From: a virus
Virus record (IMG/VR): IMGVR_UViG_3300042392_002258
Location: 1 to 41,371 of that record
Length of the DNA: 41,371 nucleotides
Strand: one strand, 5' to 3'
The stretch's first letter is position 1, and the number at the start of each line of letters is the position of its first letter. The notes beneath the pieces are model-generated. The model saw only the letters and a program-made list of their open reading frames with translations. It ran no database searches and was not told the origin of the DNA. Positions 1-41,371 of the stretch are shown here, in pieces. Position numbers and translations under genes: made by a program.

Positions 1-3000
1 CGAGACGGTCGCCCTTCAGACGGACGACTGGGACGTAGCCAGAACCATCGCCGCCTTAGTCGGCGCGGGCGCTCCAGACGTGCAGAACGCAGTGCTGCTG
101 TGGCAGGATGATGGCGATGGTGCCGATGCGATGTTCACGTTCACTGCGACCTCAGACGATTCGGCCCGGCGCATCGCAGATGTCTTCGACAAGTCGGGCA
201 GGCAGGGGTTCACCTACGACCCTGCCACCCGCGAGTTTTCAATTGCGGTCTCGGATCCGGATGCCACCGTGAATGATGGAATCAGACAGTTCATCGAGGG
301 AAATCGCGCGGCTGGCTACATTGAATCTGGCGCAGGTGCTGCAGGCGAACGAGGAAAGGGTCCGGGTCTCAAGAAAGGCAGGTTTGAACTCGTCTTCGAC
401 TCAGACTACCGAGCAATTATTGAAGGGAGTCAACGAAGGGCTGCCGCCGGAAATGCATTTGCGGGAGATCAAGGTCGGGCAGCCAGGGCCAATCAGCTTG
501 TCGCTCAAGTCCAATCGAGGCTGAGCGCATTTGAGGCGGCAAAGGCCGCAGAGGAAGGTGCCCCGCTGGCATCGCAGCCTCTGGTGTTTGGAGTGCCGGC
601 AGACAGTGGGTTCGCCGGTGCCGTTCAGGTGGCTGGGATTGATTCGGCGCTGAGGATTGCGGGGTCGCAGAAGTGGGCCAAAGGCCGCGAGCTGAAGGTG
701 ACGATGCAGACGTCATTGGCGACCGTCGCCGGCGTAGACGTCATGCGCGCCATCTCCACCCCCGGGGATTCCCGGTTCGAGTACCTGACGCAGGTCGGCA
801 CGCAGGATGCGCTGCGTGCGCTGCAGCAGAACCCGAATGCTGTGGGGTGGTACGACATTAAGACCAGGCAAGCTTTGGAGGTGGTGTCGCTTGTGCATCC
901 GGAGATCAAGACCAACCCGCGGGCGAGGTTCGCGTTCATCTGGGCTGTGGCGGTTACATCCAACGGGATGAAGGTGAACAAAAATTTTGAGATGGCTGAG
1001 AAGGTCTATCGGCAGTTCAAGGAGACCGGCAAAATGCCGACTAACGCAGGTGCCGGGCAGGCTGCTGCCGCCATCAATGACGCACTCAGCCTTTACAATC
1101 AGTTAGTAGACCAGTGGGGTATTGATAATCTGATGCGGTTCATGCTCAGCGACTTTACTGTCGGGCAGATTATCGCAATTGATGAGGACATAAAACCCGG
1201 AGGAGAGTGGGTTGAGACAATAGTGCGAGGCGCGGCGATCCTCGGACCCAAGATCGGCAACGGATTCTTCTCAAACCTGTACGGGAAGTTCGATGCGCTC
1301 ACGATGGATCGCTGGCTGGTGCGGACATGGGGTCGGTGGACCGGATCTCTGATTGTCCGGAACGAGGCGTTGATCGAAGAGGCGCGCATCAGAATAGGGG
1401 CGGCGATGGAGGCAGCATCGGCTGACTCTCGAACGATGGAGAACCTGAAGGCAGCGCTCAATCTGAATCAGTTGCCAACGGATCCGGATGCGCTTGCGGT
1501 CGCAATCAACAAGGCATCGCAGAAGGTGAATCTGCGCAACAGTATCTCATCCACCCCTCAGGGTGACGAGATGCGACTGGCGGCGAATAGCCTCGCGAAG
1601 CATCTTGATGGGCAGAAGGAGGCACCTCAAGGGCCAGGCGAACGGAACGAGATCAGGCGAGTGTTTCAATCCATCCTCGATAATATCCGGGAATCTGACC
1701 CGAGGTTCAAAGGGTTGACCATGGCTGACCTGCAGGCGGTGCTGTGGTACGCGGAGAAGCGGATTTATGAGATTGCAAAGGTGACCGATGACTCCGATGA
1801 TTCGGGCTACGAGGACGACGAGGCACCGGACTACGCCAACGCTGCGATACAGGTAGCGCGGGCGGCCGGTGTGTCGGAGGCTCGCATCAAAAAGGCTCTC
1901 AGAACAGCACTCTTAACCTCCGACGACAATGGACGCTCAACAGCAACACGATCAGGAGATGGCTCGCAGGATGCGGGGCAAGAAGGGTCTCGCAGCAGGC
2001 AGCAGGCAACGGCTCGAGGCTTTACTGAAAGCGAAAGGCGGCAGTTCCGACAGTTCGCAGCGCTTCGACGAATTCGGGGCTCCCGTAGATTACAATCCAC
2101 TGGCAGCGCTCAAGGCAAGGAATCCTGGTCTTACCGACAAGGAGATCGAGGAGATGGCGGAAGAACACGGGTTCTGAAGGGACTGGGTGTTCGGTATGTC
2201 GGGGAGTGGGTGGCAGGGAAAAACCTCAAGCGTGTCCTGAAATCGTCAGGGGAACGCATTGAGGTGCCGGAGTTTTACGAACTGGAGAAAAGCCAGCAGA
2301 GCGCGGCGGTATTTGGCGGGCTGATTTCGGCGGTCAAAGCATCATCGAAGTATGGTGCTGCGGTGTATGTCTATCCTCAGCAGGAATACGCGGACATGCG
2401 AATGTTCGTGACGAAGGACGGGAAAGCTGGGTTTGCGCTCAGGAAGGACGAGATCGTGTCTGTGTTCAGTGCGGGAGGGCGAGGGCGCGCGGGGATGGAG
2501 GCGGCTATTGCGGCCGGCGGTCGACGACTTCATGCTTTTGAGACCATACTGCCGGATTACTACGCCGCCCACGGTTTCCGTGCGGTTGCCAAAATGGGGT
2601 GGAACGAGGAGAAGAAGGAAGACGACTGGGACAAGGCTGCGTTCAGGCGGTACAACAACGGAGAGCCAGATGTCGTGTTCATGGTGCTGGATGAGGATGG
2701 ATCTGGTTTGTATTCACAGACCGACGGGAAGAAGGTCGGCGATTACGACGCCGGAGTCCGCCGGCAGAAGAAGGAACTCAAGGAACTCGAGGTCAGCCGA
2801 AACGCCAGGCGAGCAGGTGGGGCTGGTGCGGGCGCGCCGCTCGCATCGATGCCTGTGCGGCGAGGTTCGGTGGGCGGCATCTTCCGGATGTCGGGCACGG
2901 GATCGACGCAGGGAATACTCGTCGACCCGGAGCCACTGGCTACAGCCAAGGGACTCGCCGACAGGATCGACCAGATGTACGCGGAGGGTCAGACGGATGG

Positions 3001-6000
3001 CGTCGAGGATCTGGAGGCTGAGCTGGAGACCCTGCTCGACCTCATGGACGGTGGCATCGATTATCTGGAGGGGGAGAGTCAGGAAACCCCCGACAGTGAA
3101 GAGACGCGCGACATCGATGAGTTCTCCCCCGGGCCGGGCGAGCAGCTGCTGCTCAACTGGATTGCCTGGAACAATCCCACCCCCGGATTCAGTCCCAGCG
3201 AGGACTTTCCAACCTTTGGGGCAATGGCTCGCGCCCGCGACGGCGACGGCGCATGGAGAATACAGCCCGGCGTCACCGACGAGCAGATCGAGGCTGCCGC
3301 GCGGGAGGAGATGGCGCAATACATGCGCCGGCGGAGCGCCCTCAGCGGTCAGCCACTGGCATCGCTCGGCGGCACCCGGATCCGGCACCGTGCTGGTCAG
3401 GCGTTCCGAGTCAACGACCTCGCCACCCGTGCTCTGCTGACCGGCAGTCCCCTGCCTCGCGTGCTCGTCGAATCGGTTGAGGCAACGGACCGGTCGAAGC
3501 AGGCGGTAATGCAGACGGCGGCGCAGATCGGTCGCGAGATGGCGGTGGCTGCTGAGCGGACTGCGGCGCGCACAAGGATGCCCCTGGCAAATGTGCAGCA
3601 GCGGATCAGTGACGTCCTCGACGGGGTCGCCGGTGCCGGTGCTGCGCTGCGTACGCTGGATCCAACCCTGGCAGAGTATGCGCGGCGCGCGCGGCACATG
3701 GTCGACGATCTGTCGCAGGCAATCGCCAACACGCTGCCGACCGGCCCGATGAGTCAGGGAATCCTGACAAACCTCGGGACATGGATGCGCCGCAGTTACG
3801 CCGCGTTTGATCCGGAGAGCGGGTGGAATTACGATAATCTGGTGGCGGCTGCCGCGCGCAATCAGCAGGTCGGCGGGCGGCCGGCTGGCGCAATCCTCCG
3901 AGATGCTCGCCGACTGCTGCGCGCGCAGGATCCGGCGGCTACGGCAGACGAGATCGAGGCGACGATGCGGGATCTGATGGACCGGGATGTGGTAGGGCAG
4001 GCAATCGCTGGGGGCAGTGCTGTCAGGAAGAACGTGACGTCTCTGATCCGGCGGAGCACCATCGATCCGGAGATCAGAGCGTTGATGGGAGAGGAGACCA
4101 ATCCCATTCACCGCTTCGCTCAGTCGACGTCGTTCCAAGCGCAGTTCCTCGCGCGGCACGAAGGGCAGCACACAATTCGTCGAATCGGTCTGGCTGCCAA
4201 TCTGTTCCGCACTGCGAGGGGTGGTGTCTACACTGAGCAGATCCCGGCCGGTGAGGCGTGGTCGCCGCTGGCTGGGCTCTGGACGACTCCTCAGCTGCTC
4301 GCCGCTATGCGCTCGGCAGACGGCGGCGTGATGTCGGGGACGGACTTCTGGGGGTTGGCTGGGCGGTCGCTGACGTGGCTGGCTCATCGCGCGAAGATGA
4401 ACAGGGTGGCGCTGAACCCGGACTCATGGCTGGTCAACGTGTTCGGCGGCGTGGTGTCGGTCGTGGCGTCGGGGGATCCGTTCTACGGCAACATGCTCCG
4501 CCGGTTCCGTCAGGCGGTGGGTCTGTCGCGGGTCGACGCCGCGGGTCGGGTCAGTGCCACCAACCTCGCTGCGCAGGCGGTGCTCGATGGGCAGCGGCAG
4601 ATGGCTGCGCGGCTAGTGGCTAGTGGAGTAATCGGCAATACTCTGTCGCTGGGCGATCTGCAGGCGACCATCCCCCGGGCGATGCTGCAATGGATTGAGC
4701 GGGACGCGGCGGCGAACCGGGCGATGGGTGCGGCTGAACTGGCGTGGATTGGTCAGGCCCTTGGTCGAGGGTTTGGGCTACCCGGGCGCGCCGTCGGTGC
4801 CGCGGTCGGTGCCGCGGTCGGTGCGGCGGTGGGGCAGCAGCGGATCAATGCCGTGAATCAGGCAATCGCCAAGGTCGTCATGCAAACCCCTGACACCCTC
4901 GCGCGATTGACCGGATTCATGGGTAACTATGAGGCGGCGATGGCGTCGGGTCTGCGGGGGCCGGATGCCTTTGACTGGGCGGCGGAGCGGACTCGCAACA
5001 CGTTCCCTGATTACGGCAAACTGCCAGCAGCCATCAGAGACCTCAGCCGCATCGGGGTGCTAGGGTCGTTCGTCGCCTTCCAGTTTGAGGTGTATCGAAA
5101 CTTCATCTGGAACATCCGGTACATCGGTCAGGAGATGGGCAGCCGGAACCCCGCACTCCGGCGGCGCGGAATGGCGCGACTGGCAGGCATGGGGTCGGTG
5201 TCTGCGCTGGCGTTCGGCGGGCTGGGCAAATTGATAGGGTTGCTCGGCGGGGTTCCCGACGACGACGAGCGGTCGCGCGCATTCCGCAGGCAGTTTGCTG
5301 CACCATGGGAACGCGGCGCACAGCTCGAGTTCGTGCGGTATGACGAGCGTGGCGTGCAGTACTTCAACCCCAGCTACTTACTCCCTCCCGGGACCATGGC
5401 GGAACTGGTGGTGGCGGCGCAGTCCGGCGAGGATCCCGCCGATGCCGCTGGGCGGCTGGTGGCGCAGGCACTGCAGCAGTTCGCGGGCGGCTCCGTCAAC
5501 CTGTCGCCGGTGGTGGCTGCGGTGTCGGGGTATGATGCCGCCGGCCGCCAACTCTCCTACCGGCCCGGGATCGCCGGGGCGGCTGAGCGTGTCGATGCCG
5601 CAGCCAAGGTGATGCTCGACCCCGGGTATGCGGACAAGGTCGAGCGACTGGTCTACGCCACCCGCGGCGCTGAGCGGAAGGGGCGGTCGTTCAGCTGGGG
5701 TGAGGAGGGTGCTCGATTGGCTGGCGTGCGTGCGTTTTCTCGCACCTGGCCGCAACTCGTTCAGAACCGCCTCAGGGAATTCGCGAGCCAGTATCAGGAC
5801 ATCCGCAGCCAGGCGAACAAAGACCTCGGCATCAACCTGCCGGGTGCCGCCCAAAGGTCCATCGAGGAGGCAAACGCGCAGCTTGCAAAGCTGAGGGCTG
5901 AGGTGGAGAGGTTTCGGGCAGATGCAAAGGTGCTCGGGGTTCCCCCGGGGGTCGTGTACAAAGAGTTCAGGGACTCGGCGCTACCGACCGTCATCCGGTC

Positions 6001-6055
6001 AATCGAGCCCGACCCGCGCCAGCGGAACCGGGTGCGGACGGTTGGGAGTCGCTGA
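1..6055 (+). CDS. Giant polyvalent phage protein, C-terminal 2,017 residues (continues from 36840-41371 across the window ends)
   Basis: The frame is open from base 2 with no start of its own and stops at 6055; it joins in frame to the gene running off the right edge, giving about 3,528 residues in all (numbering below is for the joined protein). Visible parts: an HhH-GPD DNA-glycosylase-like region around residues 1780-1960, where GPKIGNGFFSNLYG (K1928) is followed by TMDRW (D1947), matching the Lys/Asp spacing of endonuclease III; a GNAT-like region around 2240-2440 (LPDYYAAHGF, PDVVFMV); an acidic segment around 2490-2580; then a long helical C-terminus with a glycine zipper (GAAVGAAVGAAVG) and hydrophobic helices resembling the LPD38-type region of polyvalent proteins. 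Such proteins are usually virion-borne and ejected with DNA. PLAS motifs at residues 1699, 2457 and 2629 lie near domain borders. Two stretches (273-524, 1929-2177) read better in another frame. Domain names are inference from motifs. Confidence 0.8.
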   Translation, partial: ETVALQTDDWDVARTIAALVGAGAPDVQNAVLLWQDDGDGADAMFTFTATSDDSARRIADVFDKSGRQGFTYDPATREFSIAVSDPDATVNDGIRQFIEGNRAAGYIESGAGAAGERGKGPGLKKGRFELVFDSDYRAIIEGSQRRAAAGNAFAGDQGRAARANQLVAQVQSRLSAFEAAKAAEEGAPLASQPLVFGVPADSGFAGAVQVAGIDSALRIAGSQKWAKGRELKVTMQTSLATVAGVDVMRAISTPGDSRFEYLTQVGTQDALRALQQNPNAVGWYDIKTRQALEVVSLVHPEIKTNPRARFAFIWAVAVTSNGMKVNKNFEMAEKVYRQFKETGKMPTNAGAGQAAAAINDALSLYNQLVDQWGIDNLMRFMLSDFTVGQIIAIDEDIKPGGEWVETIVRGAAILGPKIGNGFFSNLYGKFDALTMDRWLVRTWGRWTGSLIVRNEALIEEARIRIGAAMEAASADSRTMENLKAALNLNQLPTDPDALAVAINKASQKVNLRNSISSTPQGDEMRLAANSLAKHLDGQKEAPQGPGERNEIRRVFQSILDNIRESDPRFKGLTMADLQAVLWYAEKRIYEIAKVTDDSDDSGYEDDEAPDYANAAIQVARAAGVSEARIKKALRTALLTSDDNGRSTATRSGDGSQDAGQEGSRSRQQATARGFTESERRQFRQFAALRRIRGSRRLQSTGSAQGKESWSYRQGDRGDGGRTRVLKGLGVRYVGEWVAGKNLKRVLKSSGERIEVPEFYELEKSQQSAAVFGGLISAVKASSKYGAAVYVYPQQEYADMRMFVTKDGKAGFALRKDEIVSVFSAGGRGRAGMEAAIAAGGRRLHAFETILPDYYAAHGFRAVAKMGWNEEKKEDDWDKAAFRRYNNGEPDVVFMVLDEDGSGLYSQTDGKKVGDYDAGVRRQKKELKELEVSRNARRAGGAGAGAPLASMPVRRGSVGGIFRMSGTGSTQGILVDPEPLATAKGLADRIDQMYAEGQTDGVEDLEAELETLLDLMDGGIDYLEGESQETPDSEETRDIDEFSPGPGEQLLLNWIAWNNPTPGFSPSEDFPTFGAMARARDGDGAWRIQPGVTDEQIEAAAREEMAQYMRRRSALSGQPLASLGGTRIRHRAGQAFRVNDLATRALLTGSPLPRVLVESVEATDRSKQAVMQTAAQIGREMAVAAERTAARTRMPLANVQQRISDVLDGVAGAGAALRTLDPTLAEYARRARHMVDDLSQAIANTLPTGPMSQGILTNLGTWMRRSYAAFDPESGWNYDNLVAAAARNQQVGGRPAGAILRDARRLLRAQDPAATADEIEATMRDLMDRDVVGQAIAGGSAVRKNVTSLIRRSTIDPEIRALMGEETNPIHRFAQSTSFQAQFLARHEGQHTIRRIGLAANLFRTARGGVYTEQIPAGEAWSPLAGLWTTPQLLAAMRSADGGVMSGTDFWGLAGRSLTWLAHRAKMNRVALNPDSWLVNVFGGVVSVVASGDPFYGNMLRRFRQAVGLSRVDAAGRVSATNLAAQAVLDGQRQMAARLVASGVIGNTLSLGDLQATIPRAMLQWIERDAAANRAMGAAELAWIGQALGRGFGLPGRAVGAAVGAAVGAAVGQQRINAVNQAIAKVVMQTPDTLARLTGFMGNYEAAMASGLRGPDAFDWAAERTRNTFPDYGKLPAAIRDLSRIGVLGSFVAFQFEVYRNFIWNIRYIGQEMGSRNPALRRRGMARLAGMGSVSALAFGGLGKLIGLLGGVPDDDERSRAFRRQFAAPWERGAQLEFVRYDERGVQYFNPSYLLPPGTMAELVVAAQSGEDPADAAGRLVAQALQQFAGGSVNLSPVVAAVSGYDAAGRQLSYRPGIAGAAERVDAAAKVMLDPGYADKVERLVYATRGAERKGRSFSWGEEGARLAGVRAFSRTWPQLVQNRLREFASQYQDIRSQANKDLGINLPGAAQRSIEEANAQLAKLRAEVERFRADAKVLGVPPGVVYKEFRDSALPTVIRSIEPDPRQRNRVRTVGSR
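273..524 (+). CDS. Nested +1-frame ORF inside the giant gene (83 aa), possible real small gene
   Basis: This ORF starts at tandem ATG codons immediately after an in-frame TGA and ends at a CTGA. By hand count about 69% of its third codon positions are G/C, against about 45% for the giant frame over the same bases, so codon bias favours this frame. The product is amphipathic and normal in composition (ITLNLAQV-like helix, then LLKGVNEGLPPEMHLREIKV), while the giant frame here is rich in A, G and R. No family is recognised and the Shine-Dalgarno is weak. It could be a separate small gene, an overprinted gene, or the product of frameshifting. It ends 38 bases before the second PLAS motif. Confidence 0.4.
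   Translation: MMESDSSSREIARLATLNLAQVLQANEERVRVSRKAGLNSSSTQTTEQLLKGVNEGLPPEMHLREIKVGQPGPISLSLKSNRG
1929..2177 (+). CDS. Nested +1-frame ORF inside the giant gene (82 aa), probable real small phage protein
   Basis: The ORF opens at an ATG just after an in-frame TAA and ends with TGA (CTGA context). Its product has a basic helical N-terminus and a C-terminal segment containing FGAPVDYNPLAALKARNPG and a final acidic helix, which looks like a conserved small phage protein. In contrast, the giant frame over the same bases is a low-complexity R/S/G/T/Q string typical of an out-of-frame translation. Third-position G+C is about 65% here by hand count. It sits between the HhH-GPD-like and GNAT-like parts of the giant protein. 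There is no clear ribosome binding site. Function unknown. Confidence 0.5.
   Translation: MDAQQQHDQEMARRMRGKKGLAAGSRQRLEALLKAKGGSSDSSQRFDEFGAPVDYNPLAALKARNPGLTDKEIEEMAEEHGF
4793..4828 (+). repeat. Three tandem 12-bp units encoding a glycine zipper
   Basis: GTCGGTGCCGCG occurs twice, followed by GTCGGTGCGGCG. The units are in frame and encode a VGAA repeat, a glycine/alanine zipper of the kind that packs or inserts helices in membranes. The repeat could expand or contract without breaking the frame. Confidence 0.8.
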
Positions 6056-27344: not shown

Positions 27345-27622
27345 TGCCACAGGTCACCTCAGCAGCCAACGGTGCAGTCCCGGTGATCGCGGCTAGTGCG
27401 GCGCGCACCGAACTCATTTTACAGAACAACTCCGCCAAGGACGTGCGAGTCCGCATCTATGGGCCGGTCAGCCTGACAACGCCGGGGCAGAGCGGTCTGC
27501 TGCTGCGTGCAGACGGTGGATTTCTGGCGCTTCAGGGTGCAGACGCTCAACGCCCCGTCTACGCCCACACCGCCGACAGCAGCACCGTCATCCTCGACTA
27601 CGACAGCAACGTGGTGTCATGA
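27344..27622 (+). CDS. Small beta-rich tail protein, function unknown
   Basis: A 92-residue protein with strands such as RTELILQNNSAKDVRVRIYG and SGLLLRADGGFLALQ, which resembles a small jelly-roll or decoration-type domain. Its ATGA end overlaps the tail fibre start. It could be a baseplate or fibre-attachment factor. No family is recognised. Confidence 0.55.
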   Translation: MPQVTSAANGAVPVIAASAARTELILQNNSAKDVRVRIYGPVSLTTPGQSGLLLRADGGFLALQGADAQRPVYAHTADSSTVILDYDSNVVS

Positions 27623-29820
27623 GTGTTTTCATCGGTCATTCTTCAGGATCCAAACCCTCGGTCGCAGCCGACGCAGCAGCCGACATCCTTGAGGCTGAGC
27701 TGGCGCTGGGGGGCACGCCGGCAGCCAGCCGGTACTACGGGACCAATGCCGGTGCGGTGCGGGGATTCTACCCGCTGCCGACCGGCGATGGCGGTGGCGG
27801 CACGACCAACCTCGGGATCAATCTGACAGCAACAATCGTCGCCCTGAGCAGCAGCAGCGGCACCGGGGTGGATATCCCTGCCGCCACCACCACGCTGGCC
27901 GGGGCGATGACCGCCGCGGATCGGATCAAGCTCAACGGGATCGCCGCTGGGGCGACGGCGAATGCCGCTGACAGTGCGCTGCGAGATCGCTCGACGCACA
28001 CGGGAACGCAGTCGATGGGAACGATCACGGGGCTCAGCAGTGCGCTTGGTCTCAAGGCGGATCTGTCAGCGGCGACCTTTGGGAATCTCGGGGCGACTGA
28101 CTACATTTCCATCGTCGACACCGCCTCATCGTATACGCTGACACTGGAGTTTGCGGAGGGTCTGACGAATGATCACACAATCTGGATGCCAAATGCCTCC
28201 GGGACGCTTGCTTTGGTCGGTCACACGCACACTGCCGACAACCTGACGGATGCCACTGCCCTCGGCAAGGCGGTGATGCGGCTGTCGACGCCGCCGGCTA
28301 CGCGATTCGCTGCTTTCAATGCGGGCGGGATTGTCACCCTGCTGGACGAACCGAATTTCCGGAGCGCAATCGGGGCCCCCGCCGCTGACGACCCACGCTT
28401 CAGTGACGCTCGCACGCCGACTGCGCACACTCATCCGCCATCACAAATCACTGGTTCCACAACTCTGGGGCAGGCGTTGATGGTTGCGGCCAATCCGGAT
28501 GCCATCACATTCCTCAGGGTCAATGCCGACAATTCAGTGACGCTGCTGGACGCTGCCAGTTTTCGGACTGCGATTGGTGCTGGAGCTGGCACCCCTGCGG
28601 GATCAGGCACTGAATTACAGTTTCGGAATTCCACCACAGGCGAGTTTGCGGGAGTTCCTAACTCTTCTGTCTCCGGCGGAAGCATTACACTGCGAGGCAA
28701 TTACTCAGCCGTAAACCTGACGCCAGCAACTGCTGGCACACAGCAGAACTCTCCCGAGATCCACTGGCAGGGTAGCGGATGGGGTTCGACTGCAGGCGCG
28801 GCGCAGCCTGTTGAGTTTCGAGCGTATGTGGACGTTGTCTCGGGTACGAGTGCACCTACATACGTTCTGCGGTTTCAATCGCGCACTAATGTCGGCGGCG
28901 GCGGCGGGTCGGGGTGGACAAAAATATTGCACCTGCAGGCAGGTCAGGCAGGGCCTTTGGTCGACGGCGGAGGTGTCTCCGCTCAGTTTGGAACCACATC
29001 ATTAACGCAGTGCAACGTCACCAGTGTAGCGCAGCTGAATGGCTCAATGGTTGGGCTGAGGCTCATCAATACGTTTTTTGTTTCGTGGTCTGCTGACAAT
29101 AATCCGTCCGGTGCCGCAGATCTGTTTATCGGCAGGCGGGCATCAGCAAATCTGCGGATAGGAGGTGCTGATGCAGCATCCGCAGTCGCGCAGACTATTT
29201 CGGTCCAAAGCATTTCGGCCGGCACCTCAAACATGGGCGCACCCGTGTTCAGCATCGACGGATCTCAGTGCACTGGCACTGCTGTTGGTGGCACCGGATC
29301 GGCTGGCGATGTGCGGATCCGGACTGCGCCGGCGGGAGCATCAGGCAGTGCGCAGAATGCGTATGTCGAGAGTCTGCGAGCAAGGGCCGGGAAAGGCATT
29401 GCTCTATCGAACGGCAACTTTGCTGCGGCGGGGGATTGCATTGGCGAATGCACGGTGCTCCGCGGAAACACGTCAGGGACGACTCCGGCGATTCTGTCCG
29501 AGTCTTCCCTTGGCGGGGGCATGCTAATCCCGCTCAATGCCGTCGTCCATGCAATCGTACTGGTTCAAGGAATCAGTGAGGCGGGTGACGTTGCCAGATT
29601 CGCGCGGCAGGTGTGCGCTAAAAACGTGGCAGGCACCTCGAGCCTGGTGTCCTCCAATGTAACTATTGGAGCGGACGACAGTGGCACGACATCACTGGCG
29701 ATTACCGTGTCCGACACAAATGACACTCTGGACATTCAGGTTACCGGAACATCCGGCAACAACTGGCGATGGAACGCAGTGGTCCTGGCTGGTGAACTAG
29801 TTAGAAACATAGCAGAATGA
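27619..29820 (+). CDS. Tail fibre protein
   Basis: A 733-residue protein, rich in G, S, T and A, with fibre-type repeats. A unit made of LTDATALGKAVM, then RFAAFNAGGIVTLLDEPNFRS and AIGAP occurs near residues 210-255, and a related one, LGQALMVAANPDAITFLRVN followed by SFRTAIGAG, near 285-325. ADRIKLNGIAAGA and AHTHPPSQI are also fibre-typical. The C-terminal part looks beta-rich and could be the receptor-binding domain. It should form a trimer and bind the host surface. It overlaps both neighbours by 4 bp. Confidence 0.75.
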   Translation: MSVFIGHSSGSKPSVAADAAADILEAELALGGTPAASRYYGTNAGAVRGFYPLPTGDGGGGTTNLGINLTATIVALSSSSGTGVDIPAATTTLAGAMTAADRIKLNGIAAGATANAADSALRDRSTHTGTQSMGTITGLSSALGLKADLSAATFGNLGATDYISIVDTASSYTLTLEFAEGLTNDHTIWMPNASGTLALVGHTHTADNLTDATALGKAVMRLSTPPATRFAAFNAGGIVTLLDEPNFRSAIGAPAADDPRFSDARTPTAHTHPPSQITGSTTLGQALMVAANPDAITFLRVNADNSVTLLDAASFRTAIGAGAGTPAGSGTELQFRNSTTGEFAGVPNSSVSGGSITLRGNYSAVNLTPATAGTQQNSPEIHWQGSGWGSTAGAAQPVEFRAYVDVVSGTSAPTYVLRFQSRTNVGGGGGSGWTKILHLQAGQAGPLVDGGGVSAQFGTTSLTQCNVTSVAQLNGSMVGLRLINTFFVSWSADNNPSGAADLFIGRRASANLRIGGADAASAVAQTISVQSISAGTSNMGAPVFSIDGSQCTGTAVGGTGSAGDVRIRTAPAGASGSAQNAYVESLRARAGKGIALSNGNFAAAGDCIGECTVLRGNTSGTTPAILSESSLGGGMLIPLNAVVHAIVLVQGISEAGDVARFARQVCAKNVAGTSSLVSSNVTIGADDSGTTSLAITVSDTNDTLDIQVTGTSGNNWRWNAVVLAGELVRNIAE

Positions 29821-35928: not shown

Positions 35929-36843
35929 ATGCCTTCCTACAATCCAGCAGTCAACGACCGGTCCGGCGAGATCCGCGCGGCGGGCCTGGCGGATGCGTTC
36001 AAATCCTTCGCGGGGTACGGCATGCAGGGCATGCAGTGGGGTCGGGGCAATCGCCAGCGTGCGGAGGACATGGATTTCAAACGGGAGATGTTCGGGGCGC
36101 AGCAGGCGGCGCAAGAGCAGCAGTTCGCCATGGCGAATGCCCGCGACCAGCAGAGGTTTGCGATGGAGATGCAGAGTCAGCAGATGGCTCAGGCGGAGCG
36201 GAAGGCGATGGCTGAGGAGCGGAAGGCTGAATCCCTCGCCGAGGCAGACGGCTTGACGGCTGCGGTCCTCCAATCGTTCGGCCCGCGGATCAGTGAGGAC
36301 GAACGCGCGCGGGTGGCAGCCATGCCACCGCAGGCGCGCAAAGCGTGGGCGCTGACTCAGTCGAAGCTGATCCCGCAGATCCTGCAGGATGAGCAGACAA
36401 GGATGCCCATCACGACGCAACCACTTCCGGGTGGAGGTGGCGCAATTCTGCAGGGATCCCGCTTCCTCGGGCAGTACTCGGGGCCGCAGCAGCAGCGGAC
36501 AATGGAGCCCGAGAAAATCGGCATCGATCAAGCAACCGGTCAGCCGGTGTATGGGAGTTTTGGGATTGGTCCTGACGGACAGTTGGCGTTTCAGCGGGCA
36601 CCGCTGCCGCCGGGTGTCGTGGCTGCCGCGCCTCGTCAGGAGCGTCCGCCGGCATTGGTGCCAATGGGTCAGGACGGCAATGGGAACCCACTGTTCGGCA
36701 CATTGGTTCCTGATGCTGGGGGCTTCAAATTCCAGCAAATCGCTCCCGGCACTGTGATTCCTTCCGGCGGCTCGCGCGGGCAATCCCCTGCCCCGGCTGC
36801 CGCGCCTTCGTCCTCAGGATCCCGCCCATACTTCAACCGATGA
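35929..36843 (+). CDS. Probable internal virion protein
   Basis: A 304-residue protein with a long central Q/M/E-rich coiled-coil-like helix (EQQFAMANARDQQRFAMEMQ) and a proline/glycine-rich tail (SGGSRGQSPAPAAAPSS). It starts 6 bases after the previous stop and its TGA overlaps the giant gene's ATG. It likely forms part of the ejectosome or binds the giant protein in the virion. No family recognised. Confidence 0.55.
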   Translation: MPSYNPAVNDRSGEIRAAGLADAFKSFAGYGMQGMQWGRGNRQRAEDMDFKREMFGAQQAAQEQQFAMANARDQQRFAMEMQSQQMAQAERKAMAEERKAESLAEADGLTAAVLQSFGPRISEDERARVAAMPPQARKAWALTQSKLIPQILQDEQTRMPITTQPLPGGGGAILQGSRFLGQYSGPQQQRTMEPEKIGIDQATGQPVYGSFGIGPDGQLAFQRAPLPPGVVAAAPRQERPPALVPMGQDGNGNPLFGTLVPDAGGFKFQQIAPGTVIPSGGSRGQSPAPAAAPSSSGSRPYFNR

Positions 36844-39800
36844 CCACCATTCCGACTCTCGACGAACTGCTCAGCTATCAGCCCGCAGAGGGGCCGCCGA
36901 TATCCTATCAGGAGAGACTGTCGGCGATCTCAAAGTGGAAGACTGATCTGGAAACAATTGGCCGGGATGTGGCAGCCAAGGGGGAGATCCCGCCGGAGAA
37001 GGTGTGGTCGGAGGATGCCAGGCTCGAGGCTGATATCCAGAAGGCGGTGCCCGCACTGAGGCAGCAGGCGTTCGAGGATGCCTTTGCGGCGGAATTCCCC
37101 GACCCGGCGGAGCGTCAGGTGGTGGCGCAGACGCTGGCGGAGACGGCGGCGCAGAACCAAGGGAGGTTGCAGCCAGCCATCAGTATGCGGCCCGATTGGG
37201 AGGAGAAAGTGACCCGCGCGGAGGCGGTCTGGATGGATCCACAGTGGGATCAATTCCAAGGGAAGAGCGGTGGCGTCAGCGGCGATCTGGTGCTCGGCGG
37301 AAACCGACTTGGAGCACTGGCGGTGCGTCCTCGAGGAAATGGGTTTGAAGCGTTAGTGGAGAACGCGGCGGGAGAGAAATCCCTGCGGCAGATGCCGGGT
37401 ATCGAGGAGATCCGGAGGCGGGCGCGGGATGACTTCGACAAGGTGGAAAAGGGTTTGTTTGCCGCCATGGGGAGAGTCGAGTCTGCGCGCGACGCCATGG
37501 TGACGTTGGATCCGGCGATGGAGCGCGAGTACGACAACCGGCTTCAGGATCTGCAAACCATCGAGCGTGCAGAACCATCGGTCGCGGCTAGGTTGTGGAT
37601 GGCGCGCCAGCTCAAGGATGACCCGTCGTTCACCTCGGCAATCCCGGGAGCCAACCTTGATTCCATCAGCGATGTCCGAGCATGGGCTTCGCAGTTTACG
37701 GCTCGCCCTCTGCTGGGGATGCTGCGGTCGTTTGCGCAGGCTGGTGATGCTGTGCTGCCCGGCCCATCTCGCATCGACCCTGCGGCGGTGGATGCAATGA
37801 CCCCGGGTGCGCTGGGTAATCGGGTTGAAGCGATGGGTGTGGATGGATCGCAGGGGGATGTGCCGATTGCGGATCAGCTATCACAAGGCGTCGAGTCCAT
37901 GGCGACACTGATGCTGCCGGGCGGAGCGGCCCGCCCCGCGAGCGGGCTGGCGTTGAGGATGCTAGGCAGGGTCTCTCCGGCGGCACGGGCGGCTGAGGAA
38001 CTGGGGGCGGTGGCGCGGGGTGTGGAGACGGCGACAGCAATTGGTCAGGCGGCACCGTATGCGGGAATGTATACGGCCAGCTTCGGGTCGCGGTCCGGCG
38101 ATGCCGAGGCGCAGGCGCAGGCGGCGGAGGCGAGCGGGGATCAGGCTCAGGCAGATCGGATCCGGAGGTGGTCTTTGCTCTCGTCTGCGGCGGGTGCTGC
38201 TGTGGACACCGCCGTCGAGCGGATCTTTCCTGAAGAGCGGCTGGTCACCGGCGGACTGCGCGCGACCGCGCGGCGCACTGCGATGGCTCCGGTGCAGGAG
38301 GCGGCCGAGGAATTCATCGCGGCTGGGATCAACAACCCCATCCGGGATGCGGCGGGTCAATCGCAGGAGGATCCGTTTGCGGCGGCGAAGGGAGGATTCT
38401 TCGGAGGTCTGTCGTTTGCCGCAGGTGGTGCTGCGCGGGGAATTGGTCAGGCGATTGCGGCGCGGAGTATAGCTGCGCCCGAGGTTGATGACTCCGCACC
38501 GGCTCAGCAGCAGGACGGTGTTTCAGTGATTGTGCCGCCCGCCGCACCAGCCCAGACCCCCTCCCCTGCTCCTGCCGCGGCACCGGTGGCGCAGGAACCG
38601 GTGGTGGCAGCGGATCAGATGACGGCTGGCCCGCGCACGCTCGCCGATGTGGCGGAGCGGGCTGGGCGGACGACCCCGGCTGAGGAGACCGTATCGGAAC
38701 TCCCAGAGACCCTGATGGAGCAGCGTGCGCGCGTGGTGTCCGGCGTGCAGTCAGCGATGCTGGTGCCCGGCGTCGAGCAGCTGCCGGCGGAGCTGGCACC
38801 GAGGGAGGGCGAGCCACTGGTGGTGGTGCCCACGCAGGACGGGCTGCTCATCACCCGCCCCGAGAACGCGGAGGCGGCAGCCACTCTGGTGGCGGAGGGG
38901 CGCACCGGTGACGCTCTGGGCTACGGAGTGCCGCGGCGGCCGGCGCAGCCAACGGCGGCGGTGGTGCTGCGCAATGCGCAGGGCATCGAGGTGCAGGCGG
39001 CCGAGATCGATGAAGGCACCAGAGTGCAGGTGGTCGCTGCATTCCAAGAGCGGGCTCAGCCCGGCGATTCTGTGACCGTCGAACCTCGGGAGTTTGTGGC
39101 GGCTCAGCGTGGCGGGCTCGCTCCAATGGGTCCGGCCCCGCAGGCGCGCCAGAATGCCGGCCCGGTGGCAGGTCTGCTGCTGCCACCTCAGGACATCCCC
39201 CGCGGAGCAGTGACAGAGGCAGCCATGCCGCAGGATGCGGCGGCGGCGGTGCAGCAGCTCAATCAGGAGATGCCAGGGCTGGTCAATCCGGAGCAGTTAG
39301 TCATTGCCCAGAACGGCACCACGTTCGCGGCGACCGGCGGGCTGCAGGCAATGCCCAACCTGCTGCGTGCGGGCGACGGCATCAATCAGGCCGAGGGGTA
39401 CTACGATCCGGGGACAGGGGTGTCGGTTGTCTTCCTCGATCAGGTGGTCCGCCGGCCGGGGGAAACGCAGGCTGCGGCGGTGGCAAGGGTCATCATCCAT
39501 GAGCGTGTGGGGCATGCCGGATTCTTCGTCATGATGGGGGATGCCGACTTTGCGCGACGCTGGAAAGCGCTGGCACGGCAGGTGCCGGCTGCTGAGCTGG
39601 CGGAGTTGCGAGCACGGGGCTACAGCCACCTCGGAGCCGAGGCGTTGGCATGGGAGTGGTTTGCTAGTAAAGCGGAACAGGACGGCAAGGCGCAGCTGGG
39701 TGGGCTGGTGTCCCGCATGATGGCTGCGGTGCGCGCGTGGCTGGACAAACTGATGCGCCGCATCAGCCGGCGTGCCGCCACCAATGCGGAGGTGCGGGAG

Positions 39801-41371
39801 CTGATCGGGCTCGCCCGGCAGGCGGCGCAAGGACAAGGCGGTGCCGCGCGTGTTCCGATTGCGCGCATGGGTGAGGTGAGGTATGATTTGGGCAATGAAG
39901 AAACAACCCAAGCGGAGGAAACCCAAAAAGGTGGTGTATCCAATCGGGGAAGAGGGTCTCAAAACAGGTCAGCTAAGCGGTCCCGGCGAGGGTTGATGTT
40001 CTCGCTGCCGCCTAGGGCGGTTCAGGGGTACTTCGATGCCAGTGCGGTGCCGGCGGAGAAGATCGCAGCCAACCCTGCCGACGCCGCAGGACTGGGGTCC
40101 ATCACGGCAACGCAACCGTTTGATGCGGAGCAATGGAAAGAAAGAAGAGCGAAGGCTGAACGGGTTTGGAGAGGACTGGTGGACGGTTGGCCTTCACTGC
40201 TTCCGGAAGCCCTTGAGGCACTCGATCAGGGGCCGGTCTCCAGCCTCATGCATGGGCTGATCTCGCGCGAAATCCCGTCGTGGGACGTGCGGGGTGCGGT
40301 GATTGAATCGCCGGCGGACATTCTGGCGCTGACCCATGCCGTTCGCTCGCCGTTTGTGGAAAGCTTGAAACTGCTGGTGGTGGGTGATGACGGGACCGTC
40401 GTGGGGTCACGCATCGTGACGGTCGGAACGCTCGACCAGACCTCCGCTCACGCTCGGGAGTTGTTTGCTGCGATGGAGTCAATCCTTGAAGGGCATACCG
40501 GGAAGATCCGCGGGTGGATGATTTCCCACAACCATCCTGGCGGACAGGTTACCCCGTCGTCTGCCGACGTGAGGTTCACTCGACTATTGCAGGATGCGGC
40601 GGAAATGTACGGAATTCCGCTCCTCGACCACGTCGTCACAAACGGGACTAGGTATTACAGCTTTCTGGAAAAGGGACTGCTCACAATGCCGCCGGTGTCG
40701 GGGCCGAAAGATAAACGGTTGGGAGTCAGGAAAATGAGGGACAAGCCGGAATGGCAGAGGCAAATTAACCCTCAACAAGCTGAATGGGAAGTGGTGGACC
40801 GTGGATTGCGCCCCGAGTTGACTCCGGATGTGTTGCGCGAGTTGGCGCTTAACGCCACCTCCACAGACCCAAATCACATTCATCTGGTTTACATCAGTAC
40901 TCGGAACCAGATAATCGCTGTTGAGCGAGTAAAGGAGACCACCCCTGCCGTCGTGATCCAGGCAGCCATGCGAGGCGTTGGGCGTGAGGGGGCAGCTGGA
41001 GTTGCATTGATTCTGAATGGCGACTACCAAAAGGGCGCATCAATGAGTTCCAGTCGCGAACTGGTGCGGCTTTTTCAGGATCGGTTGCGGGCTGCAAACA
41101 TAAACCCCGTAGATGCCGCGCAGCGGAACAACCCGGCTACCTATCGCGAGTTGGGGCTAATGGATTCGAGCCCGCTGGCGTCGCAGCCAATCCGGATGAC
41201 TGCCGCGGCGGACCGGGTGAGCAATCTGGAGGGCATGACGATGGCGGATGTGGAGCGGAGTACAGCAGGTCAGAGTTTCGGCGACCTGCAGCGCTTGATC
41301 GACCGTGTGGCAGACGCTTTCGGCGTGCCCATCGTGTCGCGTAAGCCGGTGGTGGGTGGATGGAAGGAGGA
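36840..41371 (+). CDS. Giant polyvalent phage protein, N-terminal 1,510 residues (continues at 1-6055)
   Basis: The ATG overlaps the preceding TGA and the frame is open to the window end. Residues 1-290 are helical; around 290-560 come glycine/alanine-rich hydrophobic stretches (GFFGGLSFAAGG) of the kind seen in ejected proteins. At 887-892 HERVGH is a zincin-like HExxGH motif, one residue longer than the classical HExxH. Residues about 1100-1270 are a RadC/JAB domain: HNH (H1230, H1232) then S1240 and D1243 give the JAMM pattern HxHx7Sx2D. A related beta-rich segment follows (LVYISTRNQIIAVERV). The first PLAS motif is at 1445. Proteins that join peptidase, JAB and nucleic-acid enzymes are known as polyvalent proteins and are injected to counter host defences. 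A short nested ORF (39895-39996) interrupts the coding character here. Confidence 0.8.
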   Translation, partial: MTTIPTLDELLSYQPAEGPPISYQERLSAISKWKTDLETIGRDVAAKGEIPPEKVWSEDARLEADIQKAVPALRQQAFEDAFAAEFPDPAERQVVAQTLAETAAQNQGRLQPAISMRPDWEEKVTRAEAVWMDPQWDQFQGKSGGVSGDLVLGGNRLGALAVRPRGNGFEALVENAAGEKSLRQMPGIEEIRRRARDDFDKVEKGLFAAMGRVESARDAMVTLDPAMEREYDNRLQDLQTIERAEPSVAARLWMARQLKDDPSFTSAIPGANLDSISDVRAWASQFTARPLLGMLRSFAQAGDAVLPGPSRIDPAAVDAMTPGALGNRVEAMGVDGSQGDVPIADQLSQGVESMATLMLPGGAARPASGLALRMLGRVSPAARAAEELGAVARGVETATAIGQAAPYAGMYTASFGSRSGDAEAQAQAAEASGDQAQADRIRRWSLLSSAAGAAVDTAVERIFPEERLVTGGLRATARRTAMAPVQEAAEEFIAAGINNPIRDAAGQSQEDPFAAAKGGFFGGLSFAAGGAARGIGQAIAARSIAAPEVDDSAPAQQQDGVSVIVPPAAPAQTPSPAPAAAPVAQEPVVAADQMTAGPRTLADVAERAGRTTPAEETVSELPETLMEQRARVVSGVQSAMLVPGVEQLPAELAPREGEPLVVVPTQDGLLITRPENAEAAATLVAEGRTGDALGYGVPRRPAQPTAAVVLRNAQGIEVQAAEIDEGTRVQVVAAFQERAQPGDSVTVEPREFVAAQRGGLAPMGPAPQARQNAGPVAGLLLPPQDIPRGAVTEAAMPQDAAAAVQQLNQEMPGLVNPEQLVIAQNGTTFAATGGLQAMPNLLRAGDGINQAEGYYDPGTGVSVVFLDQVVRRPGETQAAAVARVIIHERVGHAGFFVMMGDADFARRWKALARQVPAAELAELRARGYSHLGAEALAWEWFASKAEQDGKAQLGGLVSRMMAAVRAWLDKLMRRISRRAATNAEVRELIGLARQAAQGQGGAARVPIARMGEVRYDLGNEETTQAEETQKGGVSNRGRGSQNRSAKRSRRGLMFSLPPRAVQGYFDASAVPAEKIAANPADAAGLGSITATQPFDAEQWKERRAKAERVWRGLVDGWPSLLPEALEALDQGPVSSLMHGLISREIPSWDVRGAVIESPADILALTHAVRSPFVESLKLLVVGDDGTVVGSRIVTVGTLDQTSAHARELFAAMESILEGHTGKIRGWMISHNHPGGQVTPSSADVRFTRLLQDAAEMYGIPLLDHVVTNGTRYYSFLEKGLLTMPPVSGPKDKRLGVRKMRDKPEWQRQINPQQAEWEVVDRGLRPELTPDVLRELALNATSTDPNHIHLVYISTRNQIIAVERVKETTPAVVIQAAMRGVGREGAAGVALILNGDYQKGASMSSSRELVRLFQDRLRAANINPVDAAQRNNPATYRELGLMDSSPLASQPIRMTAAADRVSNLEGMTMADVERSTAGQSFGDLQRLIDRVADAFGVPIVSRKPVVGGWKE
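39895..39996 (+). CDS. Nested +1-frame mini-ORF (33 aa) inside the giant gene
   Basis: A 33-codon ORF beginning MKKQPKRRKPKKVV and ending LSGPGEG, with a stop that overlaps an ATG of the giant frame (TGATG at 39994-39998, where MFSLPP begins). The giant frame here is a low-complexity N/T/Q/E/G/R/S stretch. A GAGGTGAGGT sequence lies about 15 bases upstream. Its very basic head and clean stop-start overlap look like a real small gene followed by an internal start. Too short to be certain. Confidence 0.4.
   Translation: MKKQPKRRKPKKVVYPIGEEGLKTGQLSGPGEG
39996..41371 (+). other. Possible internal start of the RadC/JAB part of the giant gene
   Basis: ATG at 39996 is in the giant frame and overlaps the stop of the nested mini-ORF by the TGATG pattern used elsewhere in this genome. 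A product starting here (MFSLPPRAVQG) would lead with the RadC/JAB domain. The FSL motif at such starts is also common as a linker motif in polyvalent proteins, so this may be only a linker. Confidence 0.3.

What the first reader, a model, noticed from the sequence alone, without database searches (positions are those of the whole stretch)
39895..39996. Three nested ORFs share one logic: +1 frame, at linkers, ending in an NTGA overlap with the giant frame
All three nested ORFs (39895-39996, 273-524, 1929-2177) lie in the +1 frame and end so that the giant-frame codon at the overlap is xTG (TTG then ATG, CTG, CTG). This is the same 4-bp overlap geometry used by almost all genes here (ATGA, GTGA). 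It suggests that a former row of separate genes and mini-genes has become one open frame, or that the giant product and separate pieces are both made. The frame staying open over about 200 shadow codons is unlikely without selection at typical stop rates, but not impossible.
Basis: inference. Interest (0 to 1): 0.75.

Follow-up and report, generated by a model that had tools for sequence, protein, structure and literature searches.

The report
Hidden genes inside giant phage gene
Inside one very long phage gene lies at least one complete small gene read in a shifted frame; about 80 distinct sequences from related phages keep it, no protein library or annotated genome we searched records it, and it shows that the 'linkers' of giant phage proteins can conceal whole genes.

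Summary
The three nested ORFs exist as described. They lie in the +1 frame of one long frame that is open across the contig ends (3,528 codons if the contig is circular). Staying open is not unusual given the giant protein (P = 0.83, 0.18, 0.85). The 'NTGA' overlap follows automatically from any +1 TGA stop.

Nested ORF 1929-2177 is nevertheless a real, conserved overlapping gene. It directly follows a conserved ~410-residue domain of the giant protein. Relatives keep a +1-frame ORF there. In 56 tested, the start codon sits at the same place in 56 (20.8 expected) and the frame is open in 56 (30.7 expected), often with a Shine-Dalgarno site. In two clades selection acts on the nested frame (pN/pS 0.33-0.41), not the giant frame (1.06-1.16). 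No Pfam or PHROGs family matches. The giant frame stays open through it in usable relatives, so this is not a decayed row of genes.

ORF 273-524 is possible and 39895-39996 weak: they rank 2nd and 3rd of 40 nested ORFs by codon signal, but no relatives cover them. A second conserved nested gene occurs in the Limnohabitans phage DC33 clade, so the 'one logic' idea is partly right.

The parts
36840..41371 (+). giant gene, first part (codons 1-1510; continues at position 1 if the contig is circular)
   Evidence: open frame, in frame over the contig junction
1..6055 (+). giant gene, second part, to its stop codon
   Evidence: relatives carry single uninterrupted giant frames of about 2,000-5,300 codons
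638..1873 (+). conserved all-helical ~410-aa domain of the giant protein ending in ...GYEDDEAPDYANAA; directly precedes the nested gene in relatives
   Evidence: alignments A1 and A4, 42-60% identity to most relatives; AF2 pLDDT 90; no solved relative by sequence or Foldseek
1929..2177 (+). nested gene (82 aa, MDAQQQHDQEM...EEMAEEHGF), +1 frame: confirmed overlapping gene
   Evidence: conserved start, frame and protein in relatives; top codon signal in the giant gene
1909..1928 (+). leader of the nested gene: 2 G in 20 nt, weakly structured, like this phage's other start sites
   Evidence: 1.2 percentile among +1-frame ATGs of the giant gene
1914..1916 (+). +1-frame TAA four codons before the nested ATG, which separates the ORF from any upstream frameshift
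273..524 (+). candidate nested gene (83 aa), +1 frame; unconfirmed
   Evidence: rank 2 of 40 by codon signal; no homologues; leader not start-like
39895..39996 (+). candidate nested mini-ORF (33 aa, Lys/Arg-rich; alternative start 39883), +1 frame; weak
   Evidence: rank 3 of 40 by codon signal, about 1.5 sd above background; no relatives; G-rich leader
2390..2692 (+). giant-frame domain after the nested gene (PHROG 2563, unknown function)
40305..40679 (+). RadC/JAB domain of the giant protein, downstream of ORF 39895-39996
   Evidence: Pfam PF04002, E 8.5e-22

Best explanation
The giant gene encodes a multidomain phage protein, by its position next to structural genes in relatives probably a virion (ejection-type) polyvalent protein. 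The linker after its conserved helical domain is overprinted by a complete small gene (1929-2177) in the +1 frame. Ribosomes that read the long mRNA make the giant protein. Other ribosomes start independently inside it, at the nested ATG/GTG, and make a separate, soluble, mostly helical protein of 70-80 aa (about 30 aa or more in some clades). In the nested stretch of two clades the giant frame only needs to stay open; its sequence is a by-product of the nested gene. Shown: conservation, start site, selection, and giant-frame continuity in relatives. Inferred: that both products are made; that the small protein works alongside the giant protein it is always linked to (assembly, chaperoning or packaging partner). 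ORF 273-524 may be a second such gene in this phage; 39895-39996 is undecided.
For:: a +1-frame ORF right after the same giant-frame motif in nearly all of 92 distinct relatives; ATG is replaced by GTG at the same site in several, as expected of a start codon; 56 sequences; start codon at the site in 56 (20.8 expected under synonymous resampling), open in 56 (30.7 expected), Shine-Dalgarno of 4 nt or more in 39 (27.3 expected), up to AAGGAGGT five bases before ATG; mean +1 identity 0.38 against 0.35 in the giant frame in the same region; null +1 identity 0.215; alignment score 103 against 7; pN/pS inside, +1 frame 0.41 and 0.33, giant frame 1.06 and 1.16; in the flank the pattern is reversed; top codon signal in the window's giant gene; the window's nested start has the G-poor leader of this phage's other genes, which mostly lack Shine-Dalgarno sites; shorter +1 peptides in more distant clades are also conserved beyond the null; a second nested gene, with Shine-Dalgarno sites and suppressed giant-frame synonymous change, in 17 loci.
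Against: No expression data. In the window alone ORF3 has no Shine-Dalgarno site, and its start plus openness would occur in about 28% of resampled sequences. One clade (L045, L047 and kin) and a few others keep the +1 peptide without an obvious start codon. The relatives are not phylogenetically independent. The function is unknown: no family, no fold match, modest model confidence (pLDDT 73.5).
Confidence: 0.88

Rival explanations
1. Programmed +1 ribosomal frameshifting: the +1 peptide is an alternative C-terminus of the domain before it, not a separate protein.
For: The +1 peptide almost always follows the same domain; in some clades (L019, L023, L045, L047) the +1 frame is open and shows no clear start codon before the conserved part.
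Against: In the window and most of its clade a +1 stop lies a few codons before the conserved ATG/GTG; the start position is kept as ATG or GTG with Shine-Dalgarno sites. No slippery motif or recoding stop was seen by eye; no systematic search for one was made.
Confidence: 0.06
2. A former row of separate genes was fused into one open frame, leaving the mini-ORFs as remnants.
For: Mini-ORFs lie between domains.
Against: The giant frame is continuous through the nested gene in the relatives, named phages annotate one CDS, and the nested frame is under purifying selection, so it is not a remnant. Mini-ORFs overlap the giant frame completely instead of abutting domains.
Confidence: 0.03
3. The +1 ORFs are shadow artefacts of GC-rich composition and of conservation of the giant protein; only the giant protein is made.
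For: Openness is expected from the giant protein's own sequence; for 273-524 and 39895-39996 there is no comparative evidence and their leaders are not start-like.
Against: For 1929-2177 synonymous resampling removes the +1 similarity, and selection acts on the +1 frame with the giant frame near neutral in two clades.
Confidence: 0.03
4. All three ORFs of the window are genuine nested genes.
For: They rank 1, 2, 3 of 40 by codon signal, with low giant-frame GC3 at exactly those places; relatives hold more than one nested gene per giant gene.
Against: No relatives cover the first two; 39895-39996 is only about 1.5 sd above background; other stretches of low GC3 without such ORFs occur (codons 1090-1123, 1342-1425).
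Confidence: 0.3

Closest known systems
Lambda Rz/Rz1 embedded spanin genes (PMC6139136)
   Same: A small gene wholly inside another phage gene, in the +1 frame, with its own start, usually missed by gene callers.
   Different: Rz1 is a lipoprotein paired with a small lysis protein; here the small protein has no Cys in the window or DC33 copies, so no lipobox, and the host gene is a 2,000-5,300-codon multidomain gene with the overlap at an inter-domain linker.
Polyvalent proteins of phages and conjugative elements (Iyer et al. 2017, PMC5512222)
   Same: Very large multidomain phage protein; contains a RadC/JAB domain and conserved domains of unknown function.
   Different: A text search of that paper found no mention of overlapping genes in such loci, and it says RadC occurs only in conjugative-element polyvalent proteins; this one is in a phage contig.
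Limnohabitans phage DC33 gene LBILNBIM_00045 and Podoviridae sp. ctQRb9 / ctEw122 (PQ492659, MW202722, MW202640)
   Same: Giant gene with the same conserved domain and a nested +1 ORF right after it.
   Different: Only the giant CDS is annotated; the nested gene is not recorded.

Membership tests
Overlapping (overprinted) nested protein gene | Lies entirely within another gene in a different frame, with a start codon | tested here: met
   1929-2177 inside the giant frame, +1; start ATG/GTG conserved
Overlapping (overprinted) nested protein gene | Purifying selection on the nested frame beyond that caused by the outer gene | tested here: met
   pN/pS 0.33-0.57 in +1 in three clades; resampling null
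Overlapping (overprinted) nested protein gene | Same two features for 273-524 and 39895-39996 | tested here: inconclusive
   only codon-signal support, no relatives
Overlapping (overprinted) nested protein gene | Protein is actually made | not testable with these tools
   needs ribosome profiling or mass spectrometry
Programmed +1 frameshift product | +1 frame open from the shift site without need of a start codon | tested here: not met
   +1 stop four codons before the ATG in the window, similar stops in most of its clade; inconclusive in the DWDLL clade
Embedded o-spanin (Rz1-like) | Lipobox cysteine in a small protein nested in an i-spanin gene | tested here: not met
   no Cys in the window or DC33 nested protein; host gene is a giant multidomain gene
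Polyvalent protein (giant product) | Large multidomain phage protein with typical effector or LPD domains | tested here: inconclusive
   RadC/JAB found; other domains unmatched in Pfam
Virion/ejection protein (giant product) | Present in virions | not testable with these tools
   inferred from gene order next to head/tail genes in relatives and a match to a virion structural PHROG (phrog_22602)

The most novel reading that the evidence does not exclude
Inter-domain linkers of giant phage genes are a regular home for complete small genes, several per giant gene and all in the +1 frame. Part of what looks like disordered linker in these giant proteins is then the shadow of nested genes, not sequence selected for itself; all three ORFs of this window would be examples.
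Probability: 0.35. Interest if true: 0.82.

Novelty: new variant of a known kind. Interest (0 to 1): 0.7.

Why it matters
A conserved small-protein family sits in plain view inside giant phage genes, missed because gene callers disallow such overlaps; it matches nothing in Pfam or PHROGs. It means that linker sequences of giant polyvalent phage proteins cannot be read as ordinary disordered protein, and that knock-outs or truncations of giant genes may also remove hidden genes. An isolated phage, DC33 on Limnohabitans sp. DCL3 (PMC12195039), carries the gene, so expression can be tested directly.

Tried and rejected
Openness of the shadow frame as evidence: rejected after synonymous resampling.
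NTGA geometry as evidence of gene coupling: rejected, automatic for a +1 TGA stop. Only ORF1's TGATG would allow re-initiation in the giant frame; untested.
Relatives for codons about 820-1720 (ORF1, ORF2): none in viral contigs, none for ORF2 in phages or viral contigs.
Stand-alone copies of the nested protein: none in the phage collection; weak Arthrobacter phage HTH hits (E 0.7) judged chance. A profile search in viral contigs could not be run.
Family libraries, PDB sequences and Foldseek gave nothing for the nested protein.
Fold of the upstream domain: confident model but no PDB match.
All-against-all search of alternative-frame ORFs in giants: mostly near-identical pairs that say nothing; diverged pairs L103-L127 and L108-L115 followed only by eye.

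Full report
WHAT WAS CHECKED. The window is a 41,371-base phage contig from a viral metagenome collection. One frame is open from ATG 36840 to the right end, and another from base 2 to a stop at 6055; joined across the ends they are in phase and give 3,528 codons without an internal stop. That the contig is circular is an inference.

Two do not. Keeping the giant protein sequence fixed and resampling its codons from the gene's own usage, the +1 frame is open across the three ORFs with probability 0.83, 0.18 and 0.85, so openness is not surprising. The NTGA overlap follows from any +1 TGA stop. What is unusual is codon choice. A codon-usage scan along the whole giant gene, +1 frame minus giant frame, finds its highest 83-codon windows at codons 2153-2235 and 1602-1684, and among 33-codon windows places 1018-1050 next after two pieces of the first. 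These are ORF 1929-2177, ORF 273-524 and ORF 39895-39996 to within a codon or so. Among all 40 same-strand nested ORFs of 30 aa or more they rank 1, 2 and 3 (z 5.2, 4.5, 3.2), but the background mean is 1.25 with sd 1.25, so only the first two stand clearly apart. Giant-frame GC3 falls to 0.43-0.45 inside them from 0.71 overall; lesser dips occur elsewhere without such ORFs.

RELATIVES SETTLE THE THIRD ORF. Searching viral contigs, genomes and phage records with the giant protein gave over 120 loci. Directly after a conserved ~410-residue domain ending in GYEDDEAPDYANAA, nearly every relative has a +1-frame ORF. In the main clade it reads M-x-A-Q-x-x-H-D...S-R-x-x-L-E-A-L-L...D-P-I-E...P-G-L-T-R-E...M-A-E-x-F-G-F-stop. 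At the start position ATG is replaced by GTG in several relatives. In 56 sequences the start codon sits at the site in all 56 (20.8 expected under synonymous resampling), the frame is open in all 56 (30.7 expected), and 39 have a Shine-Dalgarno match of 4 nt or more (27.3 expected), for example AAGGAGGTCGACG-ATG in MW202640. The 56 were picked by a motif that includes a start codon, and related sequences are not independent, so these are descriptive counts; the selection tests below do not depend on them.

SELECTION. Across 465 pairs from 31 representatives, mean identity inside the ORF is 0.38 in the +1 frame and 0.35 in the giant frame; after synonymous resampling the +1 identity would be 0.215, and the alignment score 7 instead of 103. 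Nei-Gojobori counts within clades give pN/pS of 0.41 (L003 clade) and 0.33 (L111 clade) in the +1 frame against 1.06 and 1.16 in the giant frame for the same bases; upstream, the giant frame is constrained and the +1 frame is not. In the DC33 clade both frames are constrained and giant-frame synonymous change falls from 0.366 to 0.135. In two clades, then, the nested gene dictates the sequence and the giant frame only has to stay open. In more distant clades only a shorter +1 peptide is kept (YRPxxAQQExDQEN..., AQxEQNExLE..., DWDLLEELDQ...), still conserved beyond the null.

HOW IT PROBABLY WORKS. In the window and most of its clade a +1 stop lies just upstream of the nested start, so a frameshift from the giant frame does not explain the peptide; independent initiation does. 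Most window genes examined lack Shine-Dalgarno sites (17 of 20 with at most 3 matching bases) and instead have G-poor leaders (3.3 G in 20 nt against 7.9 at +1-frame ATGs in the giant gene). The nested gene's leader has 2 G (1.2 percentile) and little structure (-2.6 kcal/mol, mean -12.1), the phage's own start signature; ORF 273-524 (7 G) and 39895-39996 (9 G) do not have it. The product is predicted as four helices with moderate confidence, without a fold match and without a match in PHROGs, Pfam or PDB sequences. That it works with the giant protein is inferred from constant linkage only. Some clades keep the peptide without an obvious start codon; how they make it is open.

MORE THAN ONE PER GIANT GENE. 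In 17 loci of the DC33 clade a second +1 ORF of 62 codons (MENPQSLPNQEPE...) lies about 320 codons after the domain-end motif, before another domain, with Shine-Dalgarno sites such as AAAGGAAGATC-ATG or AAAGGAGAGAAGATA-ATG. Giant-frame pS is 0.17 there against 0.43 just downstream. A 5,293-codon giant gene in a Hydrogenophaga bin has two further candidates, one with a relative in L123. In relatives with usable sequence the giant frame continues past the nested gene; the exceptions are loci ending at a contig end and L079, with a local break.

THE OTHER TWO ORFS. No relative covers giant codons about 820-1720, and ORF 273-524 has no homologue in phages or viral contigs. They rest on codon signal alone: I give 273-524 about even odds and 39895-39996 about one in three of being genes (inference).

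WHAT IS KNOWN. Embedded +1-frame genes are known in phages, above all Rz1 inside Rz, and gene callers miss them (PMC6139136). Polyvalent giant proteins are known, but a text search of the describing paper found no overlapping genes (PMC5512222). DC33, an isolate on Limnohabitans sp. DCL3 (PMC12195039), carries the nested gene at 27566-27781 on the minus strand within LBILNBIM_00045, unannotated. I found no description of this family in the library searched, which does not hold most subscription journals.

Noticed in passing
L063:5203-5391 (also L050 giant codons 1571-1632 and 15 other loci): Second nested +1-frame gene (62 aa, MENPQSLPNQEPE...PTEQA) in giant genes of the DC33 clade, with Shine-Dalgarno sites and suppressed giant-frame synonymous change.
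   Followed up: partly
L127 giant codons 983-1055 and 2963-3029; L123 codons 1026-1119: A 5,293-codon giant gene in a Hydrogenophaga bin has two further +1 ORFs with strong codon signal; the second resembles one in L123 and carries a DAQQQHD motif like the window's nested protein, at another place in the giant gene.
   Followed up: partly
L042, L045, L047, L048, L031, L027 after the YEDDEAPDYANAA motif: A clade keeps a +1 peptide (xIDWDLLEELDQQEEGQ...) with no obvious start codon; its expression mechanism is unexplained.
   Followed up: partly
window genes in general, e.g. 20801, 24659, 27081, 31331, 36840: Start sites mostly lack Shine-Dalgarno matches and have G-poor, A/C-rich leaders, suggesting a host with SD-independent initiation.
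   Followed up: partly
window 41172, 563, 2837, 3353 (giant codons 1445, 1699, 2457, 2629): The motif PLAS(Q/M/L) recurs four times between domains of the giant protein; it could be a processing site or a domain-start motif.
   Followed up: no
window 39994-39998: TGA of ORF 39895-39996 overlaps a giant-frame ATG (TGATG), so re-initiation into the giant frame at Met (MFSLPPRA...) is formally possible.
   Followed up: no
PQ492659.1 (L050): Limnohabitans phage DC33 is filed under Inoviridae in the record, although the paper reports an icosahedral head with a short tail and a double-stranded DNA genome.
   Followed up: no
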